Source of the DNA: an uncultured Bacteroidia bacterium
GTDB taxonomy: Bacteria > Bacteroidota > Bacteroidia > Bacteroidales > F082
Direction: 5' to 3'
Assembly: GCA_902767725.1 (NCBI GenBank)
Contig: CACXIM010000055.1
Location: forward strand, 1 to 32,685
DNA length: 32,685 nucleotides
Shown: positions 24,703 through 30,292 of the stretch, one piece after another
How positions within the stretch are numbered: the first letter of the stretch is position 1
How the letters are laid out: every line of letters starts with the position of its first letter
Program-made: the position numbers and the translations under genes
Notes under the pieces: generated by a model
The model's database searches: none
Seen by the model: the letters and a program-made list of their open reading frames with translations, nothing else
What the model was told of the DNA's origin: nothing

Positions 24703-27561
24703 ATGGAAACCACAGAGAAAAAACTCTTCCTATTGGATGCCTACGCGCTGATTTACAGGGCTTTTTTCGCCATGAGCAAGAACCCGAGGATGAACTCAAA
24801 AGGCCTCAACACTTCTGCAGTAATGGGCTTCTTGAACTCACTTTACGAGATCCTGCAGAAAGAGAAACCTACTCATATCGGCGTGGCCTTCGACGTGGCC
24901 GGCACCGCACAACGACAGGCCGAATACAGCGAATACAAAGCCAATCGCGAGAAGATGCCTGACGATCTCCGCGATGCCATACCTTATATTATAAGACTTA
25001 TCGAGGCCTTCAACATCCCCGTCTACGGCGTGGAAGGCTACGAAGCCGACGATGTCATTGGAACACTCTCAAAAAAAGCCGAACAACAAGGCTTTGTCAC
25101 CTATATGATGACCCCCGACAAGGACTTCGGGCAACTGGTGACGGACAAGATTTTGCTTTACAAACCCGCCAAGTTCGGCGAGCCGGCACAAGTATGGGGG
25201 CCAAAAGAAGTCTGCGAACGCTATGGCATTCAAGAGCCTAAGCAACTCATCGACATCCTTGGTCTATGGGGCGATGCCGCCGACAACATTCCAGGCATCC
25301 CGGGCATCGGCGAGAAGACTGCAGCACAACTGGTTGGAAAATACGGTAGCGTGGAAAACCTCATCGCCCATGCCGATGAGCTGAAAGGCAAACAAAAGGA
25401 GAATGTCGTCAACTTTGCTGAGCAAGGACTGATGTCGAAGAGTCTGGCCACCATCAACTTGGAGGTGCCCGTCGACTTCGATGAGGAAGAACTACGTGCC
25501 AAGGAGCCCGATGTGCCAGCGCTGATGGCTCTTTTTGAGGAACTGGAGTTTAGGACTTTCGCCAAGCGATTTTTGGAGGATTATAAGGGGAAGCACGGGG
25601 TTGACTCCCCCCTGCCCCCCTCTCAGAGGGGGACAAGCCAACCCACAGGGGCATCAGGAGGGAGTCAACAACCAGACCTGTTCTCTTCTAACGAAACTTT
25701 CGACCTTTTCAATCAAGGCAACAACAGCGGTCTGCTGGAGTTCTCCGACAAGGACTCGGCCAAGACGGTGCCACATGACTACAAACTTGTTGAAACTGAT
25801 GCTGACATTAAGGCTTTGGTCGAACACTTATCGAAGCAAACACAATTCGTCTTCGACACCGAGACCACCAACATCGACGTCTACTCCGCCGAGTTGGTGG
25901 GGCTTTCCTTCGCCATCAAGGCGCATGAGGCGTGGTATCTGTCCATGCCCGCCGAACGCGAAGAATGCCAGAAGAAACTGGAGCTGCTGCGGCCTTTGTT
26001 TGAAGACGATAGCATCATGAAGATAGGGCAAAACCTGAAATACGACATTTCCATGCTGACGCAATATGGCATCAGCGTAAAAGGCAAGCTCTTCGACACC
26101 ATGCTGGCACATTACCTCCTCGAACCCGAGCAACGCCACAACATGGACTACCTCGCCGAAGTCTACCTCAATTACATCACCATCCCCATTGAAGACTTGA
26201 TTGGCAAAGGCCGTCAGCAAAAGACCATGCGCGAGGTGTCCGTGGAACTAGTCAAGGAATACGCCGCCGAGGATGCTGACATCACACTGCAACTCTACGA
26301 GAAACTAATGCCCTTGTTGAAAGAAAACGGTGTGGAGAAGTTATTCTATGAGATTGAGATGCCACTGGTACCCGTGCTCAGCCGCATGGAGGCCAACGGC
26401 GTGCGTATCGACACGGAAAATCTGCAGCAAATCAGTGAAGCTTTTGGCATCGAGATTCATAAGATTGAAGAAGATATCTACAAAGCCGCTGGCATGCCCT
26501 TCAACATCGCCTCGCCGAAGCAATTGGGCGAAGTCCTCTTCGAGAAACTCCGTATCGACGAGAAGACCAAGAAAACCAAGACAGGACAATATGCCACGGG
26601 CGAGGATGTCTTGCAAAAACTATCGCACAAGCATCCCATCATCCAAATGATTTTGGATTACCGCTCATTGACCAAGCTGAAGTCCACTTATCTGGATGCC
26701 CTTCCTGCTTTGGTCAACCCGAAAGATGGTTTGATTCACACTTCCTACAACCAAGCCGTGACGGCCACGGGACGCTTGAGTTCCAACAATCCCAACCTGC
26801 AGAACATTCCTGTGCGAACCGAGAAAGGCCGCGAAATCCGTCGCGCCTTCGTACCTCGCAGTCCAGAATACACCCTTTTGGCCGCCGATTACAGCCAAAT
26901 CGAGCTGCGCATTATCGCTCATTTGAGCCAAGACCCCGCCATGGTCAACGACTTCAACCTTGGTCATGACATCCATGCTGCTACGGCAGCCAAGGTGTTC
27001 CATGTGCCTATGGACCACGTCACCAAGGAGCAGCGCAGCCGCGCCAAGGCAGTCAACTTCGGCATCATCTACGGCATGTCGGCCTTTGGTCTGGCCGAGC
27101 GCATGGAGCTCTCGCGCAGCGAGGCCGCCGACATCATCAAAAAGTACTTTGAGGAATATGCTGGAATCAAGGAATACATGAATCGCAGCATTGCCTTGGC
27201 GCGTGAACGCGGCTATGCCGAGACCATCTTAGGCCGACGCCGTTATCTACGCGACATCAACGGCTCCAACAGCGTGGTGCGCGGTTTCGCCGAACGCAAT
27301 GCCATCAACGCACCCATCCAGGGTAGCTCCGCCGACATGATCAAAATCGCCATGATTGGCATCCATCAGGAGTTGGAACACCTAAAGATGCAGTCGAAAA
27401 TGATCCTTCAGGTGCACGATGAACTGGTCTTCGATGCACATCTCGACGAACTTGAAGCCCTAAAGGCCATCGTTCAGAATAAGATGGTGAATGCCTTGCC
27501 GCTGTCGGTGCCGGTCATCGTGGAGATGAACACGGGGGCGAACTGGCTGGAGGCGCATTAG
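24703..27561 (+). CDS. polA: DNA polymerase I
   Basis: A 952-residue three-domain DNA polymerase I for repair and primer removal. Residues about 5-290 are the 5'-3' exonuclease (LFLLDAYALIYRAFFAM, EADDVIGTLSKKA, GDAADNIPGIPGIGEKTA). Residues about 365-540 are the 3'-5' proofreading domain and look active: FVFDTETTNID, NLKYDISML and YAAEDADITLQLYEKL keep the metal-binding acids. The polymerase part has motif A LAADYSQIELRIIAHLSQD, motif B RSRAKAVNFGIIYGMSAFG and motif C ILQVHDELVFD. Residues about 300-322, between the exonuclease domains, come from a 68-base repeat with ends TTGACTCCC/GGGAGTCAA. The linker tolerates extra residues, so the enzyme is probably functional. Confidence 0.96.
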   Translation: METTEKKLFLLDAYALIYRAFFAMSKNPRMNSKGLNTSAVMGFLNSLYEILQKEKPTHIGVAFDVAGTAQRQAEYSEYKANREKMPDDLRDAIPYIIRLIEAFNIPVYGVEGYEADDVIGTLSKKAEQQGFVTYMMTPDKDFGQLVTDKILLYKPAKFGEPAQVWGPKEVCERYGIQEPKQLIDILGLWGDAADNIPGIPGIGEKTAAQLVGKYGSVENLIAHADELKGKQKENVVNFAEQGLMSKSLATINLEVPVDFDEEELRAKEPDVPALMALFEELEFRTFAKRFLEDYKGKHGVDSPLPPSQRGTSQPTGASGGSQQPDLFSSNETFDLFNQGNNSGLLEFSDKDSAKTVPHDYKLVETDADIKALVEHLSKQTQFVFDTETTNIDVYSAELVGLSFAIKAHEAWYLSMPAEREECQKKLELLRPLFEDDSIMKIGQNLKYDISMLTQYGISVKGKLFDTMLAHYLLEPEQRHNMDYLAEVYLNYITIPIEDLIGKGRQQKTMREVSVELVKEYAAEDADITLQLYEKLMPLLKENGVEKLFYEIEMPLVPVLSRMEANGVRIDTENLQQISEAFGIEIHKIEEDIYKAAGMPFNIASPKQLGEVLFEKLRIDEKTKKTKTGQYATGEDVLQKLSHKHPIIQMILDYRSLTKLKSTYLDALPALVNPKDGLIHTSYNQAVTATGRLSSNNPNLQNIPVRTEKGREIRRAFVPRSPEYTLLAADYSQIELRIIAHLSQDPAMVNDFNLGHDIHAATAAKVFHVPMDHVTKEQRSRAKAVNFGIIYGMSAFGLAERMELSRSEAADIIKKYFEEYAGIKEYMNRSIALARERGYAETILGRRRYLRDINGSNSVVRGFAERNAINAPIQGSSADMIKIAMIGIHQELEHLKMQSKMILQVHDELVFDAHLDELEALKAIVQNKMVNALPLSVPVIVEMNTGANWLEAH
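25601..25668. repeat. Inverted-repeat element inserted in the polA linker
   Basis: Nine-base perfect ends TTGACTCCC and GGGAGTCAA enclose an inner stem CCCCCCTCTC/GAGGGGG. It encodes proline/glycine/serine-rich residues about 300-322 between domains. The C-run composition contrasts sharply with the rest of polA. Confidence 0.8.
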
Positions 27562-27566
27562 CGTAT

Positions 27567-27660
27567 ACGGCGAAGATATACAACGGCGAATTAGACAAAT
27601 TCTGCGAATTTGATTTTTCGACAAATGTAATTCGTTTTATTCGGATAACTCGCCGACAAA
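27567..27660. repeat. Upstream palindromic flank of the GxxExxY gene
   Basis: A quasi-palindrome with ends CGGCGAATTA and ATAACTCGCCG, preceded by a short related ACGGCGAAGATA word. Over 80 ungapped columns (27581-27660) it matches the downstream flank (28082-28161) at 62 positions by hand count. It ends 11 bases before the gene's ATG. Confidence 0.85.
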
Positions 27661-27671
27661 AATAAAAACCT

Positions 27672-28061
27672 ATGGAAGACAGAATACTATTCAAGGAAGA
27701 GTCGTATAAAATTATCGGAGCAGCAATGGAGGTACATAAAGTGCTCGGTACTGGTTTTACAGAGCCTGTATATCAAGAGGCTTTGGAACTTGAATTCCAA
27801 TTGCGTGATATCCCGTATGTGCGCGAAAAGAATTTCCAAATAACTTATAAAGGGCAGATTTTGGAGAAAGGATTTCGGCCCGATTTTGTTTGTTTCGATG
27901 AAATCATCGTTGAATTGAAAGCGGTTTCGGATTTTACTGATGAGCATTACGCCCAAGTTTACAATTACTTGAAAGCCTGCCAAATGGACTTAGGTCTGCT
28001 TATCAACTTCGGCAAAAAGTCCTTGGAATATAAGCGAATCCCTTGCACCCAAAAATGGTAA
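27672..28061 (+). CDS. GxxExxY protein, PD-(D/E)XK nuclease-fold
   Basis: A 129-residue protein of the GxxExxY family (PF13366-type), function unknown. The name-giving motif is GFTEPVY at residues 28-34. A PD-(D/E)XK-like catalytic core follows: FRPDFV with Asp71, then the strand IIVELKAV with Glu81 and Lys83, and a Q-x-x-x-Y motif in AQVYNYLK at 95-99. All nuclease-type residues are present, so DNA or RNA cleavage is possible but unproven. The gene lies between polA and metG, bracketed by two related palindromes of about 78 bases. No TAnnTTTG box is evident; the upstream palindrome occupies the promoter position. AT-richer than its neighbours, which suggests transfer. Confidence 0.9.
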   Translation: MEDRILFKEESYKIIGAAMEVHKVLGTGFTEPVYQEALELEFQLRDIPYVREKNFQITYKGQILEKGFRPDFVCFDEIIVELKAVSDFTDEHYAQVYNYLKACQMDLGLLINFGKKSLEYKRIPCTQKW

Positions 28062-28065
28062 CAGA

Positions 28066-28160
28066 ACGGCAAATTATGTAACAACGGCGAATTATCCAAA
28101 TTTTGCAAATTCGATTCTGCGATGAATGCAATTTGCTTAATTCGAATAATTCGCCGTTGA
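28066..28160. repeat. Downstream palindromic flank of the GxxExxY gene
   Basis: A 78-base imperfect palindrome (28082-28159) with ends CAACGGCGAATTAT and ATAATTCGCCGTTG, preceded by a related ACGGCAAATTATG word at 28066. It is a direct relative of the flank at 27567-27660. It lies between the stops of the GxxExxY gene and metG and could also terminate both. Confidence 0.88.
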
Positions 28161-28178
28161 AAGAAATCGAGCCGTTCC

Positions 28179-30257
28179 TTAGCCGACACTGCATCCCGGC
28201 GCCACCAAATCGCTCGGCGTCAGCAGCACGAGACGACCGTCCTTATCCTCAGCGGACAGGATCATACCTTCACTGACCACGCCCTTTAGCTTGCGAGGCT
28301 CGAAGTTGGCGACGAAACAGACCTGTTTGCCCACCAGCTTCTCTGGCTCGGTATAGTATTTCGCAATACCACTCACTATGGTGCGCTTCTGCATGCCGTC
28401 GTCGATGAGGAACTGCAACAGCTTGTCGGCTTTCGGCACCTTCTGGCACTCGAGAATGGTGCCCACACGGACATCCACCTTCATGTAGTCGTCGAAGCTG
28501 ACCACGGGCTTCACCTCGGCAGGCTTCCAAGCATTCAGTTGATTGGCCTTCTTGGTGTCCTCCAACTTTTGCAGTTGGGCAGCCACCACGCTGTCCTCGA
28601 CCTTCTCGAACAAAAGTTCAGGTTGATTGATGACATGGCCTTCAGGCAGCAGAACAGTGTTCTCGGCATCGTTCCAACCCTTCACTTCCAGTCCAATCAT
28701 CTGCTGCAATTTCTTTGCACTGAAGGGCAAGAAAGGCTCGCTCAAAATAGCGAGATGGGCCACAATCTGCAACGACAAAGCCATCACGGTCTTCACCCGC
28801 TCGGGGTCGGTCTTGATTTGCTTCCAAGGCTCGTTGTCGGTGAGGTATTTGTTGCCGAGACGGGCTAAATTCATCAGTTCGGAGAGGGCCTCGCGGAACT
28901 TGTAGGTATCCAACAAATGACCAATCTTAGCGGGATAAACGTTCATCTCTTCGATGACAGCCTTGTCGGTGTCGTTGAGGTTGCCCAAAGCGGGCACGGC
29001 ACCTTCATAGTATTTATGCGTCAAGACCAAGGTGCGGTTGACAAAGTTGCCAAATATGGCCAAAAGTTCGTTGTTATTGCGGTCTTGGTAGTCTTTCCAA
29101 GTGAAATTATTGTCCTTGGTCTCAGGGGCGTTGGCGGTCAAGACATAGCGCAGCACATCCTGCTTGCCAGGGAATTCCTGCAGGTATTCGTGCAGCCACA
29201 CGGCCCAGTTGCGCGAGGTCGAAATCTTGTCGTTTTCAAGGTTGAGGAACTCGTTGGCAGGCACGTTGTCGGGCATAATATAGTCGCCGTAGGCTTTCAT
29301 CATGCAGGGGAAGATGATGCAATGGAACACGATGTTGTCCTTGCCAATGAAATGCACCAGCTTGGTCTCAGGGTCTTTCCACCATTTTTCCCAGTCTTCA
29401 CCACGTTGCTCGCAAATCTCCTTGGTGTTGGAGATGTAGCCAATGGGGGCGTCAAACCAAACATAAAGTACCTTACCTTCGGCACCCTCAATTGGGACAG
29501 GCACACCCCAGTCAAGGTCGCGGGTGACGGCGCGAGGTTGCAAGCCGCCATCGAGCCAGCTCTTCACCTGACCATAAACATTGGATTTCCACTCTTTGTG
29601 ACCTTCGAGAATCCATTCACGGAGCCAGCCCTCATATTGATCCAAAGGCAGGTACCAGTGCTTGGTCGGCTTCTTCACCAAGGCCGCGCCGCTGAGCTGG
29701 GAGTGCGGATTGATGAGTTCATCGGGGCTCAAAGAAGAGCCGCATTTCTCGCATTGATCGCCATAGGCACCTTCGGCACCACATTTTGGGCATGTGCCCA
29801 CTATATATCTGTCGGAAAGGAATTTCTGCCTTTCGGGGTCGAAATATTGTTCCGTCTCCTTCTCGATGAACTTTCCTTCATCGTAGAGTTTCTTGAAGAA
29901 CTCTTGGGCCGTGGCACGGTGCATCTTCGAAGAGGTGCGCGAGTAGATATCATAGCTGATGCCCAGCTCCTCGAACGACTTCTTGATGATCTCGTGGTAA
30001 CGATCCACTATGTCTTGAGGCGTGCAGCCTTCCTTTTCGGCTTTGATGGTAATTGGCACGCCGTGCTCATCGGAACCACCGACAAACAAGACGTCCTCGC
30101 CACGCATTCGCAGATAGCGAACGTATGTGTCGGCAGGGATATAGACGCCGGCAAGGTGACCGATGTGGACAGGGCCATTGGCATAAGGCAAGGCCGTGGT
30201 TACCGTGTAACGCTTGAATCCGTTTTCACGGATTGAGGGCTTGTTCGTTGATTCCAT
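28179..30257 (-). CDS. metG: Methionyl-tRNA synthetase
   Basis: A 692-residue MetRS from ATG 30257, charging tRNA-Met in the cytoplasm. The class I HIGH motif is HIGHLAG; the KMSKS-equivalent is KISTSRN. A zinc knuckle in [18 protein letters not shown] lies in the connective peptide. After the anticodon-binding helices a C-terminal EMAP/Trbp111-like tRNA-binding domain covers about the last 110 residues ([20 protein letters not shown] start, LVAPGCSVG end). An in-frame ATG at 30287 is unlikely because it overlaps the TATTTTTG promoter box at 30285-30292. It is divergent from the outer-membrane protein gene at 30380 and converges with the GxxExxY gene. Confidence 0.96.
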
Positions 30258-30284
30258 AGTGTAGTTATTTTTGAAAAACGGGTG

Positions 30285-30292
30285 CAAAAATA
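30285..30292 (-). promoter_or_regulatory. -7 box TATTTTTG for metG
   Basis: TATTTTTG on the minus strand, 27 bases before ATG 30257, overlapping the alternative ATG at 30287. Confidence 0.7.

What the first reader, a model, noticed from the sequence alone, without database searches (positions are those of the whole stretch)
27567..28160. GxxExxY nuclease-fold gene bracketed by two related ~78-base palindromes: candidate minimal mobile or hairpin-processing module
The flanks at 27581-27660 and 28082-28161 align without gaps at 62 of 80 positions by hand count, and the downstream one is a 78-base palindrome of its own. Both are preceded by a shorter related ACGGC-A word 14 to 16 bases upstream. 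They enclose little but a small PD-(D/E)XK-fold gene with intact Asp71, Glu81 and Lys83. GxxExxY proteins have no settled function. A nuclease gene between long structured repeats resembles RAYT/REP pairs, where the encoded enzyme acts on the palindromes that border it. That role is inference.
Basis: partly seen in the sequence, partly recalled or inferred. Interest (0 to 1): 0.72.

Follow-up and report, generated by a model that had tools for sequence, protein, structure and literature searches.

The report
Mobile nuclease cassette between repeated palindromes
A small nuclease gene of unknown function sits between matching repeated palindromes, and comparison with related bacteria suggests that gene and repeats come, go and are swapped together as one small mobile unit that slips into the seam between neighbouring genes.

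Summary
In detail: a GxxExxY gene (27672-28061) lies between two related palindromes (62 of 80 positions; fold z -3.4 and -7.8). It is one case of a wider pattern. Of 68 GxxExxY loci with full flanks, 46 have paired flank repeats scoring >=40, against 11 of 188 control ORFs. The repeats are arms of 9-nt iterons (ACGAATTnn, ACGGATTnn, ACAGATTnn): one inverted arm per side, or a palindrome per side. At one site (ychF-idi) in 58 congeneric genomes, 26 carry a cassette exactly between stop and start codon, 23 are empty with the codons abutting, 3 hold a window-type palindrome alone. Iteron letters follow the nuclease lineage (3 changes on its tree), not the flanks (10), so arms and gene travel together. 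Gene-less copies abound (564 arm matches in 47 of 99 genomes; control 3) and are commoner where the gene is resident. The gene is under purifying selection; the model resembles SSO0001 and lambda exonuclease. Best reading: a mobile cassette whose nuclease acts on its own arms; that action is inferred. Four-helix-bundle (23S IVS-type) genes carry parallel arms with a 7-nt period. My searches of the paper library found no description.

The parts
27672..28061 (+). GxxExxY (TIGR04256 / PDDEXK_3) gene, 129 aa, PD-(D/E)XK nuclease fold; E31, D71, E81, K83 and Q95 invariant in 68 relatives
27582..27657 (.). upstream palindrome (pal1): arm, loop, inverted arm; 9-nt iterons of the C(G/A)AATT type
28082..28159 (.). 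downstream palindrome (pal2), the stronger one; related copies in 10 of 99 other genomes searched, in the same genus only
27567..27576 (+). short ACGGCGAAG word upstream of pal1, a partial arm
28065..28075 (+). short AACGGCAAATT word between gene and pal2, a partial arm
24703..27561 (+). polA, left neighbour (host gene)
28179..30287 (-). metG, right neighbour (host gene), convergent with polA

Best explanation
The window holds one copy of a small mobile cassette: a GxxExxY nuclease gene plus its own flanking arms. SHOWN by comparison: arms and gene are gained, lost and swapped as a unit; cassettes sit between closely spaced genes, at one site exactly between a stop and the next start codon; the arms' iteron letters belong to the nuclease lineage; arm pairs without the gene are dispersed through the same genomes. 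INFERRED: the nuclease recognises its cognate iteron arms (as DNA or as a folded strand) and cuts or resects there; host homologous recombination then copies the cassette into the matching empty junction of another genome (homing-like spread, which would explain conversion tracts running into the flanks), and more rarely the same activity lets arm-bounded pieces, with or without the gene, appear at new junctions. The window-type solo palindromes and the ~110-165-nt solo elements would be gene-less derivatives moved in trans. Loss by recombination between the two flanking palindromes would leave one palindrome, as seen at polA-metG in G021.
For: Flank repeats: 46 of 68 GxxExxY genes score >=40 vs 11 of 188 control ORFs of the same loci (Fisher p 1.5e-23); arms and period. 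Filled/empty site: ychF-idi, 26 cassette, 23 abutting, 9 other in 58 genomes; polA-metG, 3 cassette, 2 solo, 2 with a 7-nt gap, 6 other spacers in 13 genomes. Unit exchange: G124 vs G018 flanks ~97% identical, cassette windows mostly 40-76%; G016 vs G021 cassette plus ~60 nt of flank 98-100%, left flank 94%; iteron type needs 3 changes on the protein tree (0 of 200 shuffles as low) and 10 on the flank tree (15 of 200 as low); cassette presence needs 12 changes on a ychF tree of 39 genomes, at least 8 forced by well-supported branches. Solo copies: 564 arm matches in 47 of 99 genomes vs 3 for the reversed pattern; median 7.5 beyond the cassette's own arms in 26 cassette genomes vs 0 in 23 empty ones (p 6e-5; 5 of 6 sister pairs the same way). 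Structure kept: 10 of 30 pairs with two-sided changes, 0 of 500 shuffles reach it. Gene kept: median dN/dS 0.04 (15 pairs) and 0.06 (class B); model pLDDT 95, best fold matches SSO0001 and lambda exonuclease.
Against: No cleavage, binding or movement was observed; no two genomes here differ by one clean insertion with a proven target duplication. At the ychF-idi site the data fit plain allelic recombination of flanks without any enzyme action. Resident gene type and type of the solo copies disagree in G022 and G058 (agree in 5 others; read by eye). G000 has 12 arm matches of this family but is empty at ychF-idi. Five of 22 pattern-positive genomes of the order have no TIGR04256 hit, G307 with 6 copies; the association there is weak (p 0.04). 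Twelve of 68 loci have no flank match above 28. The G021 'pop-out' palindrome is a mixed match to both copies, not a clean cross-over. The fold match is to exonucleases, not to transposases.
Confidence: 0.68

Rival explanations
1. IVS-like RNA element: as in 23S rRNA intervening sequences, the arms act in RNA, forming a stem that RNase III cuts, so that the insert leaves its host messages intact; the protein is a passenger or an RNA-binding partner and spread is by homologous recombination.
For: Small ORF between inverted arms; inserts between cistrons without breaking either gene; compensatory changes in the stems; four-helix-bundle (IVS-family) genes have the same layout with their own arms. 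In Coxiella the IVS is called selfish, has a 28-bp terminal stem and is cut by RNase III (PMC4990558, passages).
Against: Dispersed gene-less copies at many loci and their link with the resident gene go beyond a passenger; the enzyme resembles DNA exonucleases; the palindromes of the window lie between convergent genes, where no shared transcript need exist.
Confidence: 0.3
2. Homing endonuclease cassette: the nuclease cuts the empty junction sequence (for example ychF-idi), not the arms, and the cassette is copied in by repair; the arms are by-products.
For: Same site filled or empty in 26 and 23 of 58 genomes; cassette plus short flank tract nearly identical between G016 and G021; patchy presence.
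Against: Arm letters are tied to the nuclease lineage; arms with no gene sit at many unrelated junctions; one junction accepts different families (window-type solo at ychF-idi in 3 genomes).
Confidence: 0.2
3. The arms are mobilised by another enzyme of the cell (an HuH/RAYT or IS transposase); GxxExxY is a passenger or host repair gene.
For: Five of 22 pattern-positive genomes lack a TIGR04256 hit; solo copies in genomes empty at ychF-idi, G000 included.
Against: Arm type follows the GxxExxY lineage and solo number follows its presence. I did not search these genomes for RAYT or IS genes.
Confidence: 0.12
4. Ordinary vertically inherited gene between transcription terminators.
For: The window copy lies between convergent genes, and its gene stays 3' of polA in 7 genomes while the other neighbour changes.
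Against: Empty and solo states at the same junction, cassette replacement, arms at operon-internal junctions.
Confidence: 0.03

Closest known systems
REP/REPIN palindromes with RAYT (REP-associated tyrosine transposase)
   Same: A single-copy-scale enzyme gene flanked by palindromes, and many dispersed gene-less palindromes; copy number linked to the enzyme gene.
   Different: Enzyme is PD-(D/E)XK, not HuH tyrosine; arms are 9-nt iterons rather than a 20-40-nt REP; whole cassette is exchanged at fixed junctions. RAYT literature seen only as a search listing with starts of abstracts.
23S rRNA intervening sequences (IVS) with four-helix-bundle S23-type ORF
   Same: Small ORF between inverted repeats, sporadic, inserted where both halves of the host product survive; passages of PMC4990558.
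   Different: Not in 23S rRNA here; nuclease instead of four-helix bundle; iteron period 9 instead of 7; many solo copies.
Homing endonuclease cassettes
   Same: Filled and empty alleles of one site, flanks near-identical, patchy distribution.
   Different: Lineage-specific terminal arms and dispersed gene-less copies.
IS elements with MITE derivatives
   Same: Terminal inverted arms, autonomous and gene-less forms.
   Different: No transposase fold; target duplication not established.

Membership tests
GxxExxY protein family (TIGR04256, PF13366) | profile score above the curated cut-off | tested here: met
   149.1 bits vs cut-off 35; 140.5 vs 22
PD-(D/E)XK nuclease fold, Cas4/lambda-exonuclease side | D...ExK active site and fold match | tested here: met
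   D71, E81, K83 invariant in 68; Foldseek best 4ic1 SSO0001 E 4e-5, next lambda exonuclease E 1e-3. That SSO0001 is Cas4, and that Q95-x3-Y99 is the RecB-family QxxxY motif, is recalled.
REPIN-RAYT system | enzyme is an HuH tyrosine transposase | tested here: not met
   gene is PD-(D/E)XK
REPIN-RAYT system | dispersed palindromes commoner where the enzyme gene is present | tested here: met
   median 7.5 vs 0, p 6e-5; weaker at order level, p 0.04
23S rRNA IVS | insert within 23S rRNA | tested here: not met
   window copy lies between polA and metG
23S rRNA IVS | excision of the insert RNA by RNase III | not testable with these tools
   stems are present and keep pairing; no RNA data
Homing endonuclease | filled and empty alleles of one site | tested here: met
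   26 filled, 23 empty of 58 genomes
Homing endonuclease | cuts the empty site | not testable with these tools
   no biochemistry
IS/MITE transposon | terminal inverted repeats | tested here: met
   inverted arms at the ends of class-B cassettes and solos
IS/MITE transposon | target-site duplication | tested here: inconclusive
   16 of 26 cassette genomes keep T(A/G)AT at the left edge and ATG at the right, from a T(A/G)ATG junction: at most a 2-3-nt duplication, not separable from a reused stop/start codon
IS/MITE transposon | transposase gene of a known family | tested here: not met
   only Pfam/NCBIfam matches are PDDEXK_3 and GxxExxY

The most novel reading that the evidence does not exclude
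A previously undescribed guild of small mobile elements made of one small protein gene between arms of short iterons, in which the protein family sets the iteron period (9 nt for GxxExxY nucleases, 7 nt for four-helix-bundle proteins) and each protein lineage reads its own iteron letters. Such elements, and their gene-less derivatives, would account for many unexplained short intergenic tandem or palindromic repeats in bacteria, possibly including published heptamer repeats.
Probability: 0.4. Interest if true: 0.9.

Novelty: categorically new. Interest (0 to 1): 0.82.

Why it matters
GxxExxY genes were found in 137 of 247 genomes sampled from the order and have no settled function. A cognate pair of nuclease and iteron arms gives that family a testable job, names a substrate to try, and ties a class of unexplained intergenic repeats to an enzyme. 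If the nuclease reads iteron letters, the natural variants (GG, GA, AG) are a ready-made specificity series. The parallel with four-helix-bundle genes would join this to the old puzzle of 23S rRNA intervening sequences.

Tried and rejected
Palindrome-associated transposable elements (PATE): the term was searched because of the name; 4 papers listed, none opened; not pursued. Phage cargo: no phage record matches the protein. Plasmid cargo: 8 plasmid records, all under 60% identity and predicted non-mobilizable. Sequence relation to solved structures: only T7 endonuclease I at E 0.23, not significant. A clean recombinational pop-out at polA-metG in G021: the solo palindrome shares 6 distinguishing positions with pal1 and 13 with pal2, interleaved, and the metG tree does not place G021 decisively; left open (the alignment part failed because the solo was not located, redone). 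Empty-site search for the G000 solos: one of 8 sites (L244) was left out of the query, one (L238) gave no paired flanks; in five of the other six sites at least one relative lacks the element, but the gap is often negative, so exact boundaries are not fixed; at the L237 site G133 has two matching places, so orthology there is unsure. Two of 30 four-helix rows were dropped because the script took another ORF. Four of 80 loci had no ORF of 90 aa and 8 lacked full flanks and were left out of the count.

Full report
THE OBSERVATION. The window lies in a draft genome (G000, 3.06 Mb, 153 contigs, 79.6% complete) of an uncultured Bacteroidales; the closest named records for the protein (92-93% identical) are uncultured Bacteroidales MAGs. 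Between the convergent genes polA and metG lies a 129-aa GxxExxY gene bracketed by two related palindromes. Both palindromes fold better than all 200 shuffles when taken alone; the upstream one is weaker and falls to z -2.3 with wider flanks.

THE SAME LAYOUT IN THE SAME GENOME. G000 has five GxxExxY genes. The other four also have repeats on both sides, with other sequences: flank-to-flank scores 159, 64, 53 and 34. The last lies inside the upper range of mismatched flank pairs (95% point 41), so it is suggestive only.

THE LAYOUT ELSEWHERE. A scan of one genome per species gave the best 80 loci of 573 confirmed; titles name Bacteroidota and also Lentisphaerae, Cloacimonadota, Calditrichia, Treponema, Delongbacteria, Desulfobulbaceae, Hydrogenedentota, Pyrinomonadaceae and Ardenticatenaceae. 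Of 68 with an ORF and full 300-nt flanks, 46 score >=40 in flank-to-flank local alignment and 55 score >=30; for 188 other ORFs of the same loci the figures are 11 and 17 (p 1.5e-23 for >=40). Flanks paired at random between loci reach 40 in 4.8%, raised because different loci share iteron types. Twelve of the 68 score under 30 or nearly so and show no clear arms. The arms are made of iterons: GxxExxY flanks show a peak at lag 9 only (0.59 and 0.58 mean best-window identity in two sets, about 0.43-0.48 at other lags, 0.45 when shuffled). Typical arms read CCACGAATTnnACGAATTnnACGAAT or CTACGGATTnn..., either one arm on each side in inverted orientation (class B) or a palindrome on each side (class A, the window).

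FILLED AND EMPTY SITES. Eighteen of the first 34 genus loci share one site, between ychF and idi (genes named from their translated ends, recalled). I read this junction in 58 genomes (of 88 with a ychF match among 99; 30 others were not fetched or ran off a contig end): 26 carry the cassette, 23 have stop and start abutting or overlapping within 5 nt, and 9 have something else, of which 3 hold a solo palindrome of the window's type (61 rows, three genomes twice). The cassette lies exactly between the stop of ychF and the start of idi. On a ychF tree of 39 of these genomes (26 cassette, 13 empty) presence needs 12 changes, at least 8 on well-supported branches, and is no more clustered than shuffled labels. 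At polA-metG, 13 genomes keep the junction: cassette in G000, G132 and G133; one palindrome in G021 and G056; a 7-nt gap in G126 and G110; unrelated spacers in six. In G048, G104 and G121 the same gene, 85-87% identical, lies 3' of polA with another right-hand neighbour, shared among them; in G048 this region encodes a dnaG-like protein by my reading of its translation (recalled, not searched).

ARMS AND GENE ARE ONE UNIT. G124 and G018 share ~97% identical flanks on both sides of ychF-idi, but between them the cassettes belong to different protein clades and their windows are mostly 40-76% identical, with the break at the arms. G016 and G021 have cassettes 98-100% identical, including about 60 nt of upstream flank, within flanks 94% identical on the left: a conversion-like tract. 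In 26 cassettes of this site the iteron letters (GG, GA or AG) agree between both arms, L364 (AG left, GG right) being the clear exception and L050 and L363 poorly resolved. Iteron type needs 3 changes on the nuclease tree (minimum 2; shuffles 12.6 on average, 0 of 200 as low) and 10 on the ychF-flank tree (shuffles 12.7; 15 of 200 as low).

GENE-LESS COPIES. In G000 eight solo elements carry the class-B ends with no gene, 108-164 nt long as measured by the script. A two-iteron pattern matches 564 places in 47 of 99 genus genomes; the reversed control matches 3. After taking away two matches for the cassette's own arms, the 26 cassette genomes have a median of 7.5 and the 23 empty ones 0 (p 6e-5); in 5 of 6 sister pairs that I picked from the tree the cassette genome has more. 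In the order, 22 of 247 genomes hold a stricter three-iteron pattern (103 matches, control 2); 17 of the 22 have a TIGR04256 hit against 120 of the other 225 (p 0.04). By eye from the cut list, solo and resident iteron type agree in G021, G120, G042, G117 and G109 and disagree in G022 and G058. For six of the G000 solo sites with readable relatives, at least one relative lacks any insert of this kind at five of them, and the same element is present in a relative at three. At one of them G000 and G022 have GA letters and G029, G120 and G042 have AG letters at the same junction. Twelve solo elements fold alike: 10 of 30 pairs show two-sided changes and 95.5% of cells pair, reached by 0 of 500 shuffles; sliding the partners destroys it. 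One of five measures, the number of further pair types, does not exceed the shuffles (385 of 500). The orientation of these twelve was set by eye.

THE PROTEIN. dN/dS is low (median 0.04 over 15 pairs of the window clade, 0.06 in class B), though dS is saturated in many pairs. An AlphaFold2 model from 68 sequences has pLDDT 95 and pTM 0.88. The only PDB matches at E <= 0.001 are four chains of SSO0001, then lambda exonuclease, LHK-Exo, RecE, MGME1 and AdnAB; a Holliday-junction resolvase appears at E 0.075. That points to an end-processing or exonuclease-like enzyme and leaves junction cleavage possible.

A PARALLEL. Four-helix-bundle genes (TIGR02436, the 23S IVS family) in the same genus have flank repeats scoring >=30 in 27 of 28 usable loci of the best 30, with a period of 7 nt (0.774 at lag 7). 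Solo palindromes of that kind sit at some of the junctions that hold GxxExxY solos in other genomes. A published heptamer repeat, TAACTGA, in Beggiatoaceae, cyanobacteria and some Bacteroidetes is unexplained; its authors considered a repeat-binding protein as the mobile part (PMC4679880, passages). Linking it to four-helix elements is a guess.

IN PRINT. GxxExxY occurs in 2 papers of the library (one passage of PMC8934634 read; the other seen as a listing), PF13366 in 1 (listing), and 12 iteron strings in none; a search for four-helix bundle, inverted repeat and intergenic listed nothing fitting among the 12 shown of 493. Most subscription papers are not in the library.

JUDGEMENT. That arms and gene form a mobile unit I hold at about 0.9; that the nuclease acts on its arms to drive it, about 0.6; the combined statement 0.68. 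I rate it categorically new because each known family considered fails at least one tested defining feature or lacks the solo copies and arms, while it works like several of them.

Noticed in passing
L257-L286 (genus-mates of the window): Four-helix-bundle (TIGR02436) genes are flanked by inverted or palindromic arms with a 7-nt period, a parallel element class.
   Followed up: partly
L013 1256-1487 (G034): A GxxExxY remnant with the middle of the gene missing (residues 1-40 and 93-129 left) between window-type palindromes.
   Followed up: no
L173 and L144 flanks: Long direct repeats flanking the gene appear, on reading, to include decayed pieces of a GxxExxY gene, as if cassettes had piled up in tandem.
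   Followed up: no
L364: Mosaic cassette: left arm of AG type, right arm of GG type.
   Followed up: no
L292, L310, L336, L341 and others: The same intergenic junctions hold other repeat families in relatives, for example one with CCCTTCGACAGGCTCAGGGACC and one with CACTGCGAGGNACGAAGCAGTC.
   Followed up: no
window:24703-27561 and L040-L043: The cassette stays 3' of polA while the gene on its other side differs between genomes, a rearrangement break at the cassette.
   Followed up: partly
G307: Six three-iteron arms but no TIGR04256 hit in this genome (86% complete).
   Followed up: no
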